Origin: a virus
Reading direction: 5' to 3' (one strand)
Length of the DNA stretch: 21,085 nucleotides
Virus record (IMG/VR): IMGVR_UViG_3300021962_000773
Span: 1-21,085 of that record
Part shown: piece by piece, positions 8,909-18,740 of the stretch
Numbering within the stretch: the stretch's first letter is position 1
How the letters are laid out: each line of letters starts with the position of its first letter
Notes under the pieces: generated by a model
What the model was told of the DNA's origin: nothing
What the model saw: only the letters and a program-made list of their open reading frames with translations
Database searches by the model: none
Position numbers and translations under genes: made by a program

Positions 8909-9463
8909 ATGGCTTTACCACACTATTCACAAGATCAAACATCGAGAAGCGGTAGACAATTTGAACCAGTTCAAGCGAATTTATTCGAAGTAACTATTCT
9001 TCCACCGGCTGGAGTTGCTGATGCACCTTTAATGTTGCAACACATCAACTCGATTAGCGGTCTAAATCTTTACAAAGAGGTAGCTGCTGTTGAACAGAAA
9101 TATAAGTTCTCACAACGTTCTTACGCTGGCATGCCAGACGCAACAACTGTTGATGTCACTATTAACTTCTCATTAAACTTAAACGATGCTAACCAAGCAT
9201 ACTTATATAAGTCTTTAAGAAGCTGGTACAATAAGCAATTCAATCCTCAAACTGGAGCAATGGGTCTTAAAAAAGATTACGTTGGAACTATCGTTGTAGT
9301 ACAATTCAATAGAGCAGGAGATATTTACAGAACTGTAACTCTTGAAGATTGCTTTATTACTTCAGGTCTTCCATTCACTGGCGACTTAAGCTACGAAACT
9401 ACTGAAGCACAAGCTTTAGAAGTATCGTGGAGATGTGATACTTGGAAGGAAGTATTAGCTTAA
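8909..9463 (+). CDS. 19: tail tube protein (gp19)
   Basis: The tube protein stacks in hexameric rings to form the rigid inner tube through which DNA passes. At 184 residues it is slightly longer than T4 gp19 (163). Recognisable features are an N-terminal strand ANLFEVTILPP, the loop ISGLNLYKEVAAVEQKY, the core PDATTVDVTINFSLNLNDANQAYLYKSLRSWY with a Trp-Tyr at the end of the helix, the strand YVGTIVVVQFNRAGDIYRTVTLEDCFITSGL, and the closing EAQALEVSWRCD. This order is typical of the gp19/FII tube family. It directly follows the sheath gene and is followed by a strong terminator, so sheath and tube probably share an abundant late transcript. Confidence 0.94.
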   Translation: MALPHYSQDQTSRSGRQFEPVQANLFEVTILPPAGVADAPLMLQHINSISGLNLYKEVAAVEQKYKFSQRSYAGMPDATTVDVTINFSLNLNDANQAYLYKSLRSWYNKQFNPQTGAMGLKKDYVGTIVVVQFNRAGDIYRTVTLEDCFITSGLPFTGDLSYETTEAQALEVSWRCDTWKEVLA

Positions 9464-9557: not shown

Positions 9558-9773
9558 ATGGAGAAACTAACCAAAAAGTTACAAGTTTTGCTCTCAGAGG
9601 ATGAAGTTACAGCGATTAATAGAATTATATTAAATGATGCAATCGAAGGCGGTGAAAGACCCGTTTCAATCTCTGCGTTCATTCGCACAATTGTTAGAAA
9701 AGAAATTGATTTAAAATCGGACTCTATTAAAGAGTGGAACAAAGATAATATTAAGAAACTTAAAAACAAATAA
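9558..9773 (+). CDS. ribbon-helix-helix-like small protein, 71 aa
   Basis: The pattern fits an Arc/MetJ-type ribbon-helix-helix DNA-binding domain: a short beta strand KLQVLLS near residues 7-13, a first helix EDEVTAINRIILNDAIEGG, then a turn and second helix beginning VSISAFIRTIVRKEI, where the S-x-S-x-F-I-R start of helix 2 is typical. The C-terminus is Lys-rich (KKLKNK). Such proteins usually dimerise and bind operators with the paired strand. A regulator between tail tube and tail-assembly genes is unusual, and its own late-type box and preceding terminator suggest separate expression. No target can be seen. A non-DNA-binding structural role remains possible. Confidence 0.65.
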   Translation: MEKLTKKLQVLLSEDEVTAINRIILNDAIEGGERPVSISAFIRTIVRKEIDLKSDSIKEWNKDNIKKLKNK

Positions 9774-9775
9774 AT

Positions 9776-10720
9776 ATGAGCGACCAACAAGATCTCAATT
9801 TAAACGATGAATATAAAAAAATCGTTGAGTCTCAAGAAAATGCTGAAGCACCTGCTGAAAACCTAGGTAAGGTTAGTATGGACAGGTTTAAACAACCTGA
9901 AGCAGCAGATGCTGATTTAGTATTAGGGTACCATCAAATTAATGTTGCTAATTTGCCATCGGCTGGTATGTTCTATCCAAAGAACACAGAAATTTCTATC
10001 AGATCTGCTAAAGTTTCTGAAATTAGACACTTTTCAGCAATCGATGAAAACAATGTCTTAGACGTTGATGATAAATTAAATTACATTTTAGAGCAATGTG
10101 TTCGCGTTGTTCATTCAAAAACCAGAATGTCATACAAAGATCTATGCGAAGAGGATCGATTCTATATCATCCTATCTATTAGAGATTTGACATTCCCAGA
10201 ACCAGAATCTAGCCTTTCAGTAGAACACACTGATAAGAAGGGCAACAAACATCAAATCGAAATCAAGAAGGAAAACTTTACATACTTTAGAATTCCAGAA
10301 ACACTTGATAAGTATTATGATCATGAGCAGCGTACATTTTTGATTGAAACCAAATCATTTGGTACAATTGAAATGCGTCCACCAACCATTGGTGTTATGC
10401 AGCGTATGACTTCATACATCAAAGACCGTCAAGAGAAGAATGAAAAGATCGATCAATCAGTTCTACAAATCATGCCATATTTGGTAAGTGAGTGGAGAGG
10501 ATTTACAGATCGTGATATCTTTAAATTTGAGGTCGATATGAACGGATGGAGCAATAAAAAATATAGTTTGATCTATAAGCTCGCAGAACAGATGAAAGTT
10601 GGCATCAAACCAGATATGGAAGTACAGATCGGGGATGAGTGGGAGGTCGTCCCAATCGGCTTTCGCGACGGCATCAAGTCTCTTTTCATTGTTCAAGATA
10701 TCGCTGGAGAACTTCTTTAA
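9776..10720 (+). CDS. gp26-like baseplate hub / tail-assembly chaperone
   Basis: At 314 residues it is longer than T4 gp26 (208). After a disordered acidic N-terminus comes NLPSAGMFYP (59-68), a motif I associate with the T4 gp26-type baseplate protein family, followed by SIRSAKVSEIRHFSAIDEN, a helical region RMSYKDLCEEDRFYIILSIRDLTFP, a beta hairpin SLSVEHTDKKGNKHQIEI, and a C-terminal half with EMRPPTIGVMQRMTSYIKD. It stands after the tube gene and before the tape-measure gene, where many tailed phages place tail-assembly chaperones with a frameshifted extension. Its stop TAA at 10718-10720 follows CTT CTT, and a +1 reading frame continues to 10940. Role as chaperone versus hub component is inferred. 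Confidence 0.75.
   Translation: MSDQQDLNLNDEYKKIVESQENAEAPAENLGKVSMDRFKQPEAADADLVLGYHQINVANLPSAGMFYPKNTEISIRSAKVSEIRHFSAIDENNVLDVDDKLNYILEQCVRVVHSKTRMSYKDLCEEDRFYIILSIRDLTFPEPESSLSVEHTDKKGNKHQIEIKKENFTYFRIPETLDKYYDHEQRTFLIETKSFGTIEMRPPTIGVMQRMTSYIKDRQEKNEKIDQSVLQIMPYLVSEWRGFTDRDIFKFEVDMNGWSNKKYSLIYKLAEQMKVGIKPDMEVQIGDEWEVVPIGFRDGIKSLFIVQDIAGELL
10712..10720 (+). promoter_or_regulatory. candidate programmed +1 (or -2) frameshift site CTT-CTT-TAA
   Basis: At the stop of the gp26-like gene the sequence reads GGAG-AA-CTT-CTT-TAA-G. CUU before a stop, with a GGAG upstream, resembles the +1 site of bacterial prfB (CUU UGA). Slippage of the CUU-reading tRNA onto UUU would continue as AAG ACG AAG TTT in the +1 frame, adding 73 codons to 10940 and giving a protein of about 387 residues. 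A -2 slip would enter the same frame. Not proven. Confidence 0.5.
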
Positions 10721-10940
10721 GACGAAGTTTCACATATATCATCAATTACATATTCAACCTTCTGAATTGGAGGCAATGGAATACTATGAATTCCATTACT
10801 TAATGAAAGATTTGGTCGAACACCTGAAGAAGGAGAACGAAGCAAATCAAGGCCAAAAAGAACAAACAGGAGATATGATGAGTAAGATGAAGATACCAAA
10901 CATGAAAGTACCAAATCTAAAGGTTCCTTCGCTTAAATAG
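10719..10940 (+). CDS. +1-frame extension / gp51-like small tail-assembly protein
   Basis: The frame beginning at AAG 10719 encodes KTKFHIYHQLHIQPSELEAMEYYEF, then a charged helix and a tail with three near-repeats K(I/V)PN(M/L)KV. The first in-frame ATG after the upstream stop is at 10776, behind TTGGAGG; starting there gives only 54 residues and removes IYHQLHIQPSELEAM, which looks like the start of a folded helical domain. The frame is also open upstream to an ATG at 10599, deep inside the gp26-like gene. Expression as a frameshift fusion is therefore the best reading, with independent initiation at 10776 as the alternative. Position before the tape-measure gene matches G/GT-type chaperone extensions; similarity to T4 gp51 is only suspected. 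Confidence 0.6.
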   Translation, partial: KTKFHIYHQLHIQPSELEAMEYYEFHYLMKDLVEHLKKENEANQGQKEQTGDMMSKMKIPNMKVPNLKVPSLK

Positions 10941-10993: not shown

Positions 10994-13252
10994 ATGCAAA
11001 TATTATTAGCACCCCTTGTTAGATTAACAAAATTGATGGAAGACCAGAATGTAATGGTCAAAGATATGCATGCAATTTTAACAGTAGATCTTAAGAAGGC
11101 AAGTGTTGATAATGCTAAAGAATTAAAGAAACAAACAACCCTATTAACAGATATTAGAAATTTAATAAAGCAACAGATCCAACAGAAAGAAGATCAAAAA
11201 TCTAGTGGTGGAGGCGGAGCTAAAATAAAGATGCCAAGTATTATGGGCGCTGTTGGTGCTGGTTTTGCAATTGTAACTATGGCAGCTGCCCTAGTTGCTG
11301 CAGCAGGAATATTTAGTATTATGCCTCAGGTTTCACCTGCTCAAATCTTAACTGCAATCGCAATTGGTGCAGTATTTATGATTTTAACCCCAATGTTTGT
11401 GGATATTTCTGAAGCTCTTAGAGGCGGAGGATTAATTAATAGAATTGTAGGTAAATCAATGGGAGTATCGACAGGCAGTATTAAAGACATGTTAAGAGAT
11501 ACTGGCGGTGTTGCTTTAGCAATGATTGGCATGTCATTAGGTCTTATGGCTTCTTCTTGGATTTTTACAGCAATTAAACCAATCACGCTTGCTCAATTTG
11601 CAACCGCAGCCCTAATCGGTATTGCATTTATTCCAATTTCATTTGCATTTGGCCAGATTGTAAAAGGATTACAGAGGGCAAAAATTGGTATGGATAAAGA
11701 AGGATTTAAAAGATTGGGTATGGTAACCCTTTCTATGGCTGCGATTGCACTCGGATTAGCAGCAGTTGCACACATCTGGAATTTAACAATGCCAAAGAAC
11801 TTTATTGCCCTACCAGATGTTACTTGGATCCTAAAGGCAGGTTTAATTATTTGGATTTTCAGCGCTGGATTCTCTAAGATCCTAAAGACAATTAAAGGAG
11901 CATCCTTAAAGGATATGTTATTTGCAACTGCAGCTCTACCTCTACTTGCAATTTCATTGGTTGGAGTTGCATGGATCTTCCAATATTTTAGTGAAGTTTC
12001 TGAATGGGTTGCGCCTCCGGTTGAATGGACCCTTAAAGCTGGTTTAGCCATGTTTGTTTTTGGAGTGCCATTTGTATTGATCTCAATGTTAGCTGGTAAA
12101 GCAGGTCTTAAAGGAATCTTATTGGGTGCTCTTGCAGTTCCATTGATTGCAATTGGTGTCTTAGCAACTGCATGGATATTTTCACTCCTTTCAGGAGTTG
12201 AATTTGTTTCACCACCGATGGATTGGGCCCTTGCAGCCGCTTTATCAATTACTGCGTTTGCAATTCCACTTGCAGTAGTTGGCCTATTAGCACAATTATT
12301 AACACCAGTTGGAATTCTACTCGGAGCAGCAGGTATCATCTTAATTGCTGGTACAATGTGGGTTGTTGCTTGGATCTTTAGTAAATTACCAGATTTAAGT
12401 GCAATTGCTGCAAATTTCACAGATGCAATTATGTATCCAATCAATGCAATGATTACCGCCTTAGGCAGATTTAAAAATGAAATTGGCATTGAAAATATGG
12501 TGCCATTAGCCGGTGGATTACTTGCAATTGCTGGTGGTTGGTTAGCCTTAACTGCTGCGCTCGCAGGAACCGCAGTGAGTGGATTAATTCAAGGGGTTGC
12601 AAACGTCGGTACTGCGATTCTAGATGGAATTTCAAGCCTATTTGGCGGAGGTAAAACCAAATCACCAATTGAATTGTTAGATATGTTAATTGGCCGAACT
12701 GATGGTATTATTAAACTGGCAGATCCTGTTAAAAAATTAGGAGTTGCATTTGGTAAAATTGCGGCAACTACCGAAATGGTGGTTCGTGGAGTTACAGCAT
12801 TCTCACCGTTTCTTGACGAAGATAAGGCAAGTACTTTTGAAAAGAGTGCATCAGCGGCTGAAAAACTTGCAAAAGCATATAGTTCAATTGCTGCTTCAAG
12901 TAAAATCATGAACATTCCAGCCCTACAGGCTTCAGCTAGAATGTTTGAAGCAATTGCCAAAATTGCAGAAAATAACGGGCAAGACGCAATTACTGAATTG
13001 TCTAAGTCATTACTGGCCGCAGTGAAAGAGCTTTCTGAAACCGTTAAAAATCTTGAAAACTCAACAGCTGGTCAGAAAGAAGGTATTACCGAAGCTATTT
13101 CAGGCGCAATGTCAACCTTTATTGATAAGATTAAAGGTGCAAAAGATGAGACTGGTAAAGAAGCAGGTCTTATCGATATTGAACCAATCGTGCTTGCGAT
13201 TCAAGAACTTGAAGAGAGATTTGACCGAGCAATTAAGGTTCAAGCAGTTTAA
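10994..13252 (+). CDS. probable tape-measure protein built of hydrophobic repeats
   Basis: Tape-measure proteins set tail length, fill the tube and are ejected into the host. This 752-residue protein begins with a helical, coiled-coil-like region (1-70), a Gly linker (SSGGGGAK), then about 400 residues of strongly hydrophobic repeats (about 85-480), and a more hydrophilic helical C-terminus (about 560-752: KASTFEKSASAAEKLAKAYSSIAAS). The repeats carry (A)WIF-type marks at about 107, 191, 262, 329, 396 and 462, the later ones 66-71 apart, each followed by a second hydrophobic helix and often PP or P before W. At about 1.5 angstrom per residue the length predicts a tail near 110 nm. It follows the tail-assembly chaperone locus, the normal tape-measure position. 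Another membrane-active virion protein is the alternative. Confidence 0.65.
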   Translation: MQILLAPLVRLTKLMEDQNVMVKDMHAILTVDLKKASVDNAKELKKQTTLLTDIRNLIKQQIQQKEDQKSSGGGGAKIKMPSIMGAVGAGFAIVTMAAALVAAAGIFSIMPQVSPAQILTAIAIGAVFMILTPMFVDISEALRGGGLINRIVGKSMGVSTGSIKDMLRDTGGVALAMIGMSLGLMASSWIFTAIKPITLAQFATAALIGIAFIPISFAFGQIVKGLQRAKIGMDKEGFKRLGMVTLSMAAIALGLAAVAHIWNLTMPKNFIALPDVTWILKAGLIIWIFSAGFSKILKTIKGASLKDMLFATAALPLLAISLVGVAWIFQYFSEVSEWVAPPVEWTLKAGLAMFVFGVPFVLISMLAGKAGLKGILLGALAVPLIAIGVLATAWIFSLLSGVEFVSPPMDWALAAALSITAFAIPLAVVGLLAQLLTPVGILLGAAGIILIAGTMWVVAWIFSKLPDLSAIAANFTDAIMYPINAMITALGRFKNEIGIENMVPLAGGLLAIAGGWLALTAALAGTAVSGLIQGVANVGTAILDGISSLFGGGKTKSPIELLDMLIGRTDGIIKLADPVKKLGVAFGKIAATTEMVVRGVTAFSPFLDEDKASTFEKSASAAEKLAKAYSSIAASSKIMNIPALQASARMFEAIAKIAENNGQDAITELSKSLLAAVKELSETVKNLENSTAGQKEGITEAISGAMSTFIDKIKGAKDETGKEAGLIDIEPIVLAIQELEERFDRAIKVQAV

Positions 13253-17774: not shown

Positions 17775-17791
17775 AAAACCAACGACAAATG
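17775..17791 (+). repeat. junction repeat AAAACCAACGACAAATG, likely relic of a lost paralog end
   Basis: The 17-nt sequence recurs at 18277-18293 and 18723-18739 with single-base changes. There it encodes the ending KTNEK* of one gene overlapping the next ATG. Here no gene ends, yet TTT-AAA-ACC-AAC-GAC-AAA-TGA would read FKTNDK*, so it looks like the leftover tail of a deleted copy. Confidence 0.6.
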
Positions 17792-18028
17792 AAACATACA
17801 GCAGTAGATTGGTTGTATAACAACCTAAAATCTCACTTTGAACACGATGGAGATTTATTGGAATGCGTGCAAATGTCAATGCAGCAAGCCAAAGAAATTG
17901 AGAAGGAGCAGATAATAAATGCTTATGAACAAGGTATTGAAGATGGCTATTGGCATCCAGAAAATGGATATACTAATCAATTTAAAGATGCAGAACAATA
18001 CTACAACGAAACCTTTAACACCAAATAG
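17789..18028 (+). CDS. MKQTAVEW-family small protein, copy 1
   Basis: The 79-residue protein starts MKHTAVDWLYNNLKSHF, has a central helix QQAKEIEKEQIINAYEQGIEDGY, and ends DAEQYYNETFNTK. Two paralogs follow at 18082 and 18291, sharing the MKxTAVxW start, the K-E-E-K-Q helix and the YYxETF end. I know this pattern from many small proteins of Bacteroidota phages and genomes, without assigned function. The leader is the conserved 17-nt junction repeat and no clear promoter of its own is visible, although ATTGTATAATC at 17761 is A/T-rich. A stretch of 26 nt at 17885-17910 is identical to 18363-18388. Confidence 0.8.
   Translation: MKHTAVDWLYNNLKSHFEHDGDLLECVQMSMQQAKEIEKEQIINAYEQGIEDGYWHPENGYTNQFKDAEQYYNETFNTK
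17885..17910 (+). repeat. 26-nt direct repeat shared by paralog copies 1 and 3 (also 18363-18388)
   Basis: The 26 bases starting CAAGCCAAAGAAATTGAG and ending in GGAGCA are identical at 18363-18388 while flanking codons differ. They encode (Q)AKEIEKEQ. The identity suggests recent duplication or gene conversion between copies 1 and 3. Confidence 0.75.
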
Positions 18029-18059
18029 TTGGTTGCCCAAACTCTCGTTCGTATATTTA
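18029..18059 (+). promoter_or_regulatory. host-type promoter TTGGTT-N17-TATATTTA
   Basis: TTGGTT (18029-18034) and TATATTTA (18052-18059) are separated by 17 nt in the gap between two paralogs. TTCGTATATTTA is shared with the promoter at 20429-20459. The box ends 22 nt before the ATG at 18082. Confidence 0.55.
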
Positions 18060-18081
18060 ATCAAATAAAGAATAAAGAGAA

Positions 18082-18294
18082 ATGAAACAGACTGCAGTAG
18101 AATGGTTTACAAACCAACTTGAAAAGCATTATGTTTTTCAAGACATCAGAAACACAACGGCATTCTTACACGCCAAAGAAATGGAGATGAAACAGATAAT
18201 GGATGCTTATGATGAGGGATGGTCTGATGGCTTTGATGACAAAGACCTTAACGATGACTACTACAATGAAACCTTTAAAACCAACGAGAAATGA
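18082..18294 (+). CDS. MKQTAVEW-family small protein, copy 2
   Basis: The 70-residue protein starts MKQTAVEWFTNQLEKHYVF, keeps the central KEMEMKQIMDAYDEGWSDGF helix and ends DDYYNETFKTNEK. It is more diverged from copy 1 than copy 3 is in the central helix at DNA level. Its stop overlaps the start of copy 3 (ATGA at 18291-18294) inside the 17-nt junction repeat. It has its own promoter in the 53-nt gap upstream. Function unknown. Confidence 0.8.
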   Translation: MKQTAVEWFTNQLEKHYVFQDIRNTTAFLHAKEMEMKQIMDAYDEGWSDGFDDKDLNDDYYNETFKTNEK

Positions 18295-18740
18295 AACAGA
18301 CAGCAGTAGAGTGGTTGATGGAGATAGACAAATCTCGTGCAATCACCATAGAAGAATGGCAACAAGCCAAAGAAATTGAGAAGGAGCAACACCGAAAAAC
18401 ATATCATCAAGGTCTTAATAGCAATTTCCAAGACTTTGAACAATACTACAGCGAAACCTTTAACACCGAAGAAATGACAAGAGAAGAAAAGCTAGAAACA
18501 ATAGTAAAGCTATTTGCAAAAATTATGTTTTATGGAGATTGGGAATGGGGAACTCCAAACGAAAGAGTCATAACTATGCTAATGCAAGAAGTTGGTATGT
18601 ACCCGTTTAAAGACGAAGATGATATGATTTCTAAAACCCCAGTAAACGACGAGTTGTATAAAAAGGCAATTAAGGAAATACCGTCCAGACAAGCTAAAGG
18701 ATGGGATGAAAGTATACCCGTTAAAACCAACGAAAAATGA
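18291..18740 (+). CDS. MKQTAVEW-family protein, copy 3, with extra C-terminal domain
   Basis: Residues 1-60 are a full family member (MKQTAVEWLMEIDKS, QQAKEIEKEQHRKTYHQG, FEQYYSETFNTEE). Residues 62-149 are an added domain starting MTREEKLETIVKLFAKIMFYGDWEW and ending ESIPVKTNEK. The added part begins with a Met (ATG 18474) and could once have been a separate gene, now joined in frame because the first unit ends TEE instead of a stop. The ending KTNEK* again overlaps the following ATG in the 17-nt junction repeat, so the extra domain was inserted before a conserved tail or acquired one by recombination. Confidence 0.8.
   Translation: MKQTAVEWLMEIDKSRAITIEEWQQAKEIEKEQHRKTYHQGLNSNFQDFEQYYSETFNTEEMTREEKLETIVKLFAKIMFYGDWEWGTPNERVITMLMQEVGMYPFKDEDDMISKTPVNDELYKKAIKEIPSRQAKGWDESIPVKTNEK

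What the first reader, a model, noticed from the sequence alone, without database searches (positions are those of the whole stretch)
10599..10940. Probable programmed +1 frameshift (CUU-UAA) fusing the gp26-like protein to a 73-codon extension before the tape-measure gene
The gp26-like ORF ends CTT CTT TAA, with GGAG a few bases upstream. The +1 frame is open across the stop and encodes a helical domain (FHIYHQLHIQPSELEAMEYYEF) whose start lies upstream of any ATG not buried in the previous gene. CUU before a stop with an upstream Shine-Dalgarno-like element is the layout of the prfB frameshift. Known tail-assembly chaperone pairs (lambda G/GT, P2 E/E') sit between tube and tape-measure genes and use frameshifting, most often -1; +1 shifting is known in Listeria phage PSA. 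A +1 RF2-like site in a T4-like gp26/gp51 locus would be an unusual variant. The last ~120 nt of the gp26-like gene also use more G+C-rich codons, as if two frames were constrained.
Basis: partly seen in the sequence, partly recalled or inferred. Interest (0 to 1): 0.78.

Follow-up and report, generated by a model that had tools for sequence, protein, structure and literature searches.

The report
Phage tail chaperone made by frameshift

Summary
The fused +1 reading frame is real, but the shift site is not CUU-UAA. In 61 close homologs the last codons before the stop change only in ways that are silent in the +1 frame, so +1 translation starts upstream of the stop. All 154 homologs counted carry one in-frame UUU_C at the same place (window 10661-10664). 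It is followed by a rare codon in the two big clades (CGY or CCC). In 7 of 97 distinct sequences a +1 stop lies one codon upstream of it. A GGAGG, usually in a small hairpin loop, precedes it by 14-17 nt. Three more distant homologs lack the site. The frame-0 protein is a gp26-family (PF12322) protein whose model best matches the HK97 tail assembly chaperone (Z 5.0). The +1 extension is homologous to T4-like gp51. So this is most likely a lambda G/GT-type tail assembly chaperone pair (314 and 387 aa). In 14 T4-like and Ackermannviridae phages examined, gp51-like sequence sits in the -1 frame over a slippery gp26 end; T4 itself has two paralogous genes. Nothing was tested experimentally. New variant of a known kind.

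The parts
9776..10720 (+). frame-0 gene: gp26-family (T4_baseplate) tail/baseplate-hub assembly chaperone, short product 314 aa
   Evidence: phrog_36717 E=5e-31; relatives match PF12322; profile match to T4-like gp26 E=3.1e-9; model best resembles HK97 tail assembly chaperone, Z 5.0
10632..10653 (+). predicted mRNA hairpin (arms 10632-10638 and 10647-10653) with GGGAGG in the loop
   Evidence: z -2.6 against synonymous recoding for the window; mean z -2.1 over 48 representatives; compensatory changes in relatives
10642..10646 (+). Shine-Dalgarno-like GGAGG, 14 nt upstream of the UUU codon
   Evidence: GGAGG in 81 of 87 distinct upstream 40-mers against 0.09 per kb in the gene body
10661..10666 (+). 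proposed +1 shift site UUU_CGC (P-site tRNA-Phe UUU to UUC; rare A-site codon CGC)
   Evidence: TTT C in 154 of 154 loci counted (three other homologs lack it there); only in-frame TTTC of this ORF; CGC is 2% of Arg codons in the clade
10665..10940 (+). +1-frame extension, 91 codons plus TAG: gp51-like (T-like) domain of the 387-aa long product
   Evidence: phrog_634 E=3.6e-5; profile match to the -1-frame gp51-like extensions of T4-like phages E=2.2e-10; third-position-dominated divergence
10685..10720 (+). dual-coded stretch, frame 0 FIVQDIAGELL-stop and +1 SLFKISLENFFK
   Evidence: frame-0 third positions invariant (0 of 11 variable) in 45 distinct sequences against 0.53 mean difference in the gene body
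10712..10720 (+). CTT CTT TAA: frame-0 stop, end of the short product; not the shift site
   Evidence: not shared by the second large clade that keeps the extension
8909..9463 (+). tail tube protein (context)
   Evidence: phrog_4542 tail tube E=1.2e-9
10994..13252 (+). 752-aa ORF, probable tape measure (context)
   Evidence: position and length; only a weak match to phrog_2231 of unknown function

Best explanation
One mRNA gives two tail-assembly chaperones. Most ribosomes read frame 0 to TAA at 10718 and make a 314-aa gp26-like protein (G-like). A fraction slip +1 while tRNA-Phe sits on UUU (10661-10663): it re-pairs with UUC because the next base is C and the A-site codon CGC is slow. They then read 91 codons in the +1 frame and make a 387-aa protein with a gp51-like C-terminal domain (GT-like). 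A GGAGG shown in an mRNA hairpin loop just upstream probably raises the slip rate. Shown from sequence: the open and constrained +1 frame, the conserved UUU_C, the bound on the site from both sides, the homologies, the SD-like and hairpin conservation. Inferred: that the shift occurs and how often, that the hairpin and SD stimulate it, and that the two products act on the tape measure and tube as lambda gpG and gpGT do.
For: (1) +1 frame conserved in 61 of 61 close homologs and in a second clade and singletons. (2) Substitution pattern flips upstream of the stop: frame-0 third positions 0.53 mean difference in the gene body, 0.00 in the overlap; changes fall at +1 third positions. (3) UUU_C in 154 of 154 loci counted; A-site codon CGC/CGT or CCC, which make up 2%, 13% and 1% of their synonymous sets in the clades concerned. 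(4) Bounds: 7 of 97 distinct sequences have a +1 stop one codon upstream of TTC, and 11 lack any ATG/GTG/TTG before the conserved core. (5) +1 peptide matches phrog_634 'baseplate hub assembly catalyst' and the gp51-like extensions of T4-like phages, E=2.2e-10. (6) Frame-0 protein is gp26-family; model matches HK97 tail assembly chaperone at Z 5.0, next row 2.4. (7) GGAGG enrichment; hairpin stability and covariation. (8) Literature: UUU_Ynn is +1-prone in bacteria (PMC5009743); UUU_CGU is the influenza PA-X site (PMC3498833); upstream duplexes promote +1 shifting on 70S ribosomes (PMC6321510).
Against: No protein or reporter data. Three distant homologs lack UUU_C at that place: MA9V-1 has UUU_C eight codons downstream, LR756504 has CCC_A, PTm1 has neither. 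The SD-like GGAGG lies 11-25 nt upstream, mostly 14 or 17, not the 3 nt of prfB. Bacteroidia ribosomes have an occluded anti-SD (PMC8710568). The hairpin differs in form between clades and is weak in several. CAA after UUU in Lak-type phages is not rare. The first seven +1 codons after the slip vary freely, so the exact slip codon rests on motif conservation and the upstream stops, not on dual coding. Loci are related, so counts are not independent events. The window protein itself has no Pfam hit.
Confidence: 0.87

Rival explanations
1. One reading: +1 slip of tRNA-Leu at CUU-UAA (10715-10720), prfB-like, with GGAG as stimulator.
For: CTTCTTTAA is invariant in all 62 window-clade loci; CUU_U is a known efficient +1 site.
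Against: +1 frame is selected upstream of the stop and homology to gp51 begins there; GGAG not conserved and the second clade ends AAAGAATAA yet keeps the +1 extension.
Confidence: 0.04
2. Separate gene: ribosomes initiate independently in the +1 frame inside the gp26-like gene, using the GGAGG as a true Shine-Dalgarno.
For: Strong GGAGG; GTG or ATG codons exist in the +1 frame in many sequences.
Against: No start codon is positionally conserved; 11 distinct sequences spread over all clades have no ATG/GTG/TTG between the upstream +1 stop and the conserved core; Bacteroidia rarely use SD for initiation (PMC8710568).
Confidence: 0.05
3. +1-frame entry at another site between 10661 and 10685, for example CTT_T at 10682, or a -2 shift.
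For: Dual coding proves +1 reading only from about 10685.
Against: CTT is CTA, TTG or ATT in relatives, so it cannot re-pair there; no conserved site allows -2 re-pairing; UUU_C is the invariant slip-capable tetranucleotide.
Confidence: 0.07
4. Two genes formerly fused and now split by an inactivating frameshift or by sequencing error.
For: None found.
Against: Same arrangement in dozens of independent contigs and in isolated phages (PAU, pT24, MaF61), with both frames under selection.
Confidence: 0.01

Closest known systems
Lambda G/GT tail assembly chaperone frameshift (and counterparts in P2, Mu, HK97)
   Same: Two products with a shared N-terminal part from a gene between tube and probable tape measure; model of the shared part resembles HK97 chaperone
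   Different: Shift is +1 at UUU_C instead of -1; proteins belong to the gp26/gp51 family; shared part larger, extension shorter
Influenza A PA-X and amalgavirus UUU_CGN +1 sites
   Same: Same tetranucleotide UUU_C followed by CGN with a slow A-site codon, away from any stop codon
   Different: Bacterial ribosome, dsDNA phage, unrelated genes; here with upstream GGAGG and hairpin; A-site codon may also be CCC, CCT, CAA, CTC
prfB (RF2) +1 frameshift CUU_UGA
   Same: +1 direction, SD-like sequence upstream, P-site re-pairing
   Different: No stop codon at the shift site; SD-like element 14-17 nt away, not 3 nt; no release-factor logic
YopN-TyeA UUU_Ynn +1 shift (Yersinia)
   Same: UUU_Y +1 shift on bacterial ribosomes (PMC5009743)
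   Different: Unrelated genes; no conserved SD/hairpin mentioned in the passage read
T4-like gp26 / gp51
   Same: Both parts are homologous
   Different: Cyanophages and others carry gp51 in the -1 frame over U_UUU_UUY; T4 has two separate paralogous genes
Forward (+1) frameshifts annotated in actinobacteriophages (PMC10885494); Listeria PSA/A118 tsh CCC_UGA; haloarchaeal HSTV-2
   Same: +1 shifting in phage tail genes is known
   Different: Different genes, sites and hosts; in the passages read none is said to use UUU_C

Membership tests
G/GT-type tail assembly chaperone | lies between tube and tape-measure genes | tested here: inconclusive
   Tube confirmed (phrog_4542); the 752-aa ORF downstream is tape measure by position and length only
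G/GT-type tail assembly chaperone | short and frameshifted long product share the N-terminal part | tested here: inconclusive
   Strongly supported by sequence conservation; the products themselves were not observed
G/GT-type tail assembly chaperone | fold of the G part | tested here: inconclusive
   HK97 chaperone 2ob9 is the top VIA match, Z 5.0, rmsd 3.7 over 87 residues, next row 2.4; Foldseek alone E=4.6
G/GT-type tail assembly chaperone | both products absent from the mature virion; G:GT ratio matters for tail assembly | not testable with these tools
   needs proteomics and genetics
gp26 family (PF12322 T4_baseplate) | sequence homology to T4 gp26 family | tested here: met
   Window protein itself has no hit; relatives PAU 2.7e-9 and LR756500 7.6e-8 over the cut-off; profile-profile E=3.1e-9
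gp51 / phrog_634 | C-terminal domain homology | tested here: met
   window +1 peptide E=3.6e-5, 15 of 23 members match at E up to 1; profile-profile E=2.2e-10
prfB-type +1 site | shift at a sense codon directly before a stop, SD about 3 nt upstream | tested here: not met
   +1 frame constrained upstream of the stop; upstream GGAG and the CTT-TAA end not conserved
UUU_CGN +1 motif (PA-X, amalgavirus type) | UUU_C tetranucleotide with CGN in the A site | tested here: met
   Window clade CGC/CGT throughout, MaF61 CGA; other clades UUU_C with CCC, CCT, CAA or CTC. Likeness of motif, not common descent

The most novel reading that the evidence does not exclude
gp26/gp51 is the tail-chaperone pair of T4-like phages at large, and its long form is made by -1 shift (cyanophages and others), +1 shift (mostly Bacteroidota phages) or gene duplication (T4). 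The +1 version uses a previously undescribed element: a Shine-Dalgarno shown in an mRNA hairpin loop 14-17 nt upstream of UUU_C plus a rare codon, working on ribosomes whose anti-SD is normally hidden.
Probability: 0.5. Interest if true: 0.8.

Novelty: new variant of a known kind. Interest (0 to 1): 0.7.

Why it matters
Internal +1 shift sites without a stop codon are hard to spot, and few natural bacterial cases are known (PMC5009743). This one is conserved among proteins only about 22-30% identical, gives a clear testable element (UUU_C, rare codon, hairpin-borne SD), and would correct annotation in huge and jumbo phages such as PAU, pT24, MaF61 and the Lak phages. It also offers an answer to two stated oddities: why T4 lacks the G/GT frameshift (PMC5009743), and why cyanophage gp51 lacks the first ~200 residues of T4 gp51 (PMC3037559).

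Tried and rejected
CUU-UAA as shift site: rejected on dual-coding pattern and lack of conservation. Hairpin AACTTC..GAAGTT around the stop: seen by eye, broken in several relatives, dropped. -2 shift: no conserved re-pairing. Independent start: no conserved start codon. T4 26/51 as syntenic model: T4 genes are on opposite strands. Direct profile comparison of the window family with single T4 gp26 or gp51 sequences was weak; it became clear only with T4-like alignments. Alignment A1 was too diverse for a collection scan (error). Searches were input errors. One search used a made-up 40-residue probe, found nothing, and is not evidence. Foldseek against PDB gave no significant match. The whole fusion could not be translated with the word TTTC=F because TTTC occurs again in the +1 frame, so the 387-aa product was not folded. 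PubMed Central searches found no report of a gp26/gp51 frameshift or of this site; the library lacks most subscription papers, so priority is not established.

Full report
OBSERVATION. The frame-0 ORF 9776-10720 encodes 314 aa and ends CTT CTT TAA; the +1 frame is open from 10599 to 10940. A scan of IMG/VR gave 67 loci. In the 61 examined besides the window, the +1 frame is open across the stop and, where not cut by a contig end, continues 71-80 codons with a conserved protein (K[TIV][KR]F..Y...L.[LIV]QPSE...YYE.HY), and the end is always CTTCTT|TAA. So the fused frame is real.

WHERE THE +1 FRAME BEGINS. Reading the same alignment by codon, changes in the last codons of frame 0 fall on frame-0 first positions and are silent in the +1 frame: TTR (Leu), ATH (Ile), TCN (Ser), CTN (Leu). 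Frame 0 meanwhile changes amino acids (D[IFL][ATS][GTQS]ELL). Quantified on 45 distinct window-clade sequences: mean pairwise difference at frame-0 codon positions 1, 2, 3 is 0.35, 0.28, 0.53 in the gene body, 0.05, 0.00, 0.23 just after the slip site, and 0.14, 0.02, 0.00 in the overlap (third positions: 0 of 11 columns vary). After the stop the +1 positions show 0.22, 0.13, 0.49. The second clade (55 distinct sequences) is more conserved but shows the same tilt. The +1 frame is therefore translated upstream of the stop, which excludes CUU-UAA as the shift site.

THE SITE. Distant homologs from isolated and assembled phages and a second large clade keep a +1 extension. In 154 loci counted, exactly one in-frame TTT C lies in the last 28 codons, always at the homologous place: TTT followed by CCC 85, CGC 34, CGT 28, CAA 3, CCT 2, CGA 1, CTC 1. 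In the window it is at 10661, the only in-frame TTTC of the ORF. Three homologs were left out of this count because they lack it there: MA9V-1 (UUU_C eight codons downstream), LR756504 (CCC_A) and PTm1 (neither). In the gene bodies CGC and CGT are 2% and 13% of Arg codons in clade A, and CCC is 1% of Pro codons in clade B, so the A-site codon is rare in both clades. Seven of 97 distinct sequences have a +1 stop one codon upstream of TTC, and 11, spread over all clades, have no ATG, GTG or TTG between the upstream +1 stop and the conserved core. The shift is thus bounded between about one codon before TTT and the start of the conserved core eight codons later. Within that range UUU_C is the invariant slip-capable tetranucleotide (P-site UUU to UUC, both read by tRNA-Phe).

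STIMULATORS (weaker part). GGAGG occurs in 81 of 87 distinct 40-mers upstream of TTT, against 0.09 per kb in the gene bodies; spacing is mostly 14 or 17 nt (range 11-25). The 48 nt upstream fold better than synonymous recodings: mean z -2.1 over 48 representatives, 67% below p 0.05. The GGAGG usually lies in the loop. Compensatory changes support the stem in five clade-A relatives (100% paired, covariation 0.40 against 0.19 shuffled) and in clade B (97.6% paired, seven double changes at one pair). In some window relatives a different hairpin is predicted, and in several the effect is absent. Published work gives a basis: UUU_Ynn is prone to +1 shifting in bacteria (PMC5009743); slow A-site codons are discussed for UUU_C in PA-X (PMC3498833); upstream hairpins mimic the SD duplex and promote +1 shifting on 70S ribosomes (PMC6321510); F. 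johnsoniae prfB keeps a +1 site with an SD-like sequence although its anti-SD is occluded, while Chryseobacterium relatives with altered anti-SD lack it (PMC8710568). The Chryseobacterium phage MA9V-1 also lacks GGAGG here, which fits but is one case.

WHAT THE PROTEINS ARE. The frame-0 family matches PF12322 (T4 gp26) through its relatives and T4-like gp26 by profile comparison, E=3.1e-9. An AlphaFold2 model (pLDDT 80, pTM 0.74) matches predicted baseplate-hub assembly chaperones in BFVD, and its best solved match is the HK97 tail assembly chaperone (Z 5.0, rmsd 3.7 over 87 residues, next row Z 2.4); Z under 8 alone is not proof. The window +1 peptide matches phrog_634 'baseplate hub assembly catalyst' (E=3.6e-5) from its ninth residue, and profile comparison with gp51-like sequences gives E=2.2e-10. 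The gene order tube, chaperone, extension, long ORF (probable tape measure) fits a G/GT pair. Products would be 314 aa and 296 + 91 = 387 aa.

WIDER PICTURE. In P-SSM3, S-CAM22, P-SSM5, S-N03, DSL-LC02, Melnitz-3, phiM19, Moby, VH7D, Asswx_1 and RHph_I9, gp26 ends on T_TTT_TTC or a close variant (TTT, TTG) and a gp51-like sequence continues in the -1 frame; STML-13-1, Cygsa01 and D533 have ATT TTC or CTT TTC. This looks like a -1 frameshift, inferred from 14 phages only. T4 gp26 and gp51 both match PF12322, and gp51 carries an extension after its gp26-like part, so T4 appears to have replaced the shift by gene duplication. Earlier authors noted that cyanophage gp51 lacks about 200 N-terminal residues of T4 gp51 but keeps its C-terminus (PMC3037559), and that G/GT shifting is widespread except in T4 (PMC5009743).

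VERDICT. Long fused product real by conservation; shift +1 at UUU_C; function as a G/GT-type chaperone pair likely; SD/hairpin stimulation plausible. All mechanism statements are inferences from sequence. New variant of a known kind.

Noticed in passing
L176-L185, L191-L194 (T4-like and Ackermannviridae phages), end of gp26: A gp51-like sequence lies in the -1 frame overlapping gp26 at U_UUU_UUC or similar in 14 of 14 phages read: probable -1 frameshift, annotated as separate genes or missed.
   Followed up: partly
L080 3803-4429 (-) and 4480-5229 (+), phage T4: T4 gp26 and gp51 both match PF12322; gp51 looks like a gp26 paralog with the extension fused in frame.
   Followed up: partly
L072, L077, L078: Three distant homologs (MA9V-1, LR756504, PTm1) keep a +1 extension but lack UUU_C at the usual place; MA9V-1 also lacks GGAGG, and published work reports an altered anti-SD in Chryseobacterium.
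   Followed up: partly
window 9558-9773: 71-aa ORF between tube and chaperone gene with no family match; by eye it resembles a ribbon-helix-helix protein.
   Followed up: no
window 17789-18740: Three tandem small ORFs share the N-terminus MK[HQ]TAV[DE]W, apparent local duplications.
   Followed up: no
window 10878-10937: The extension ends in a repetitive tail (MK.PNMK.PNLK.PSLK) also seen in most homologs; role unknown.
   Followed up: no
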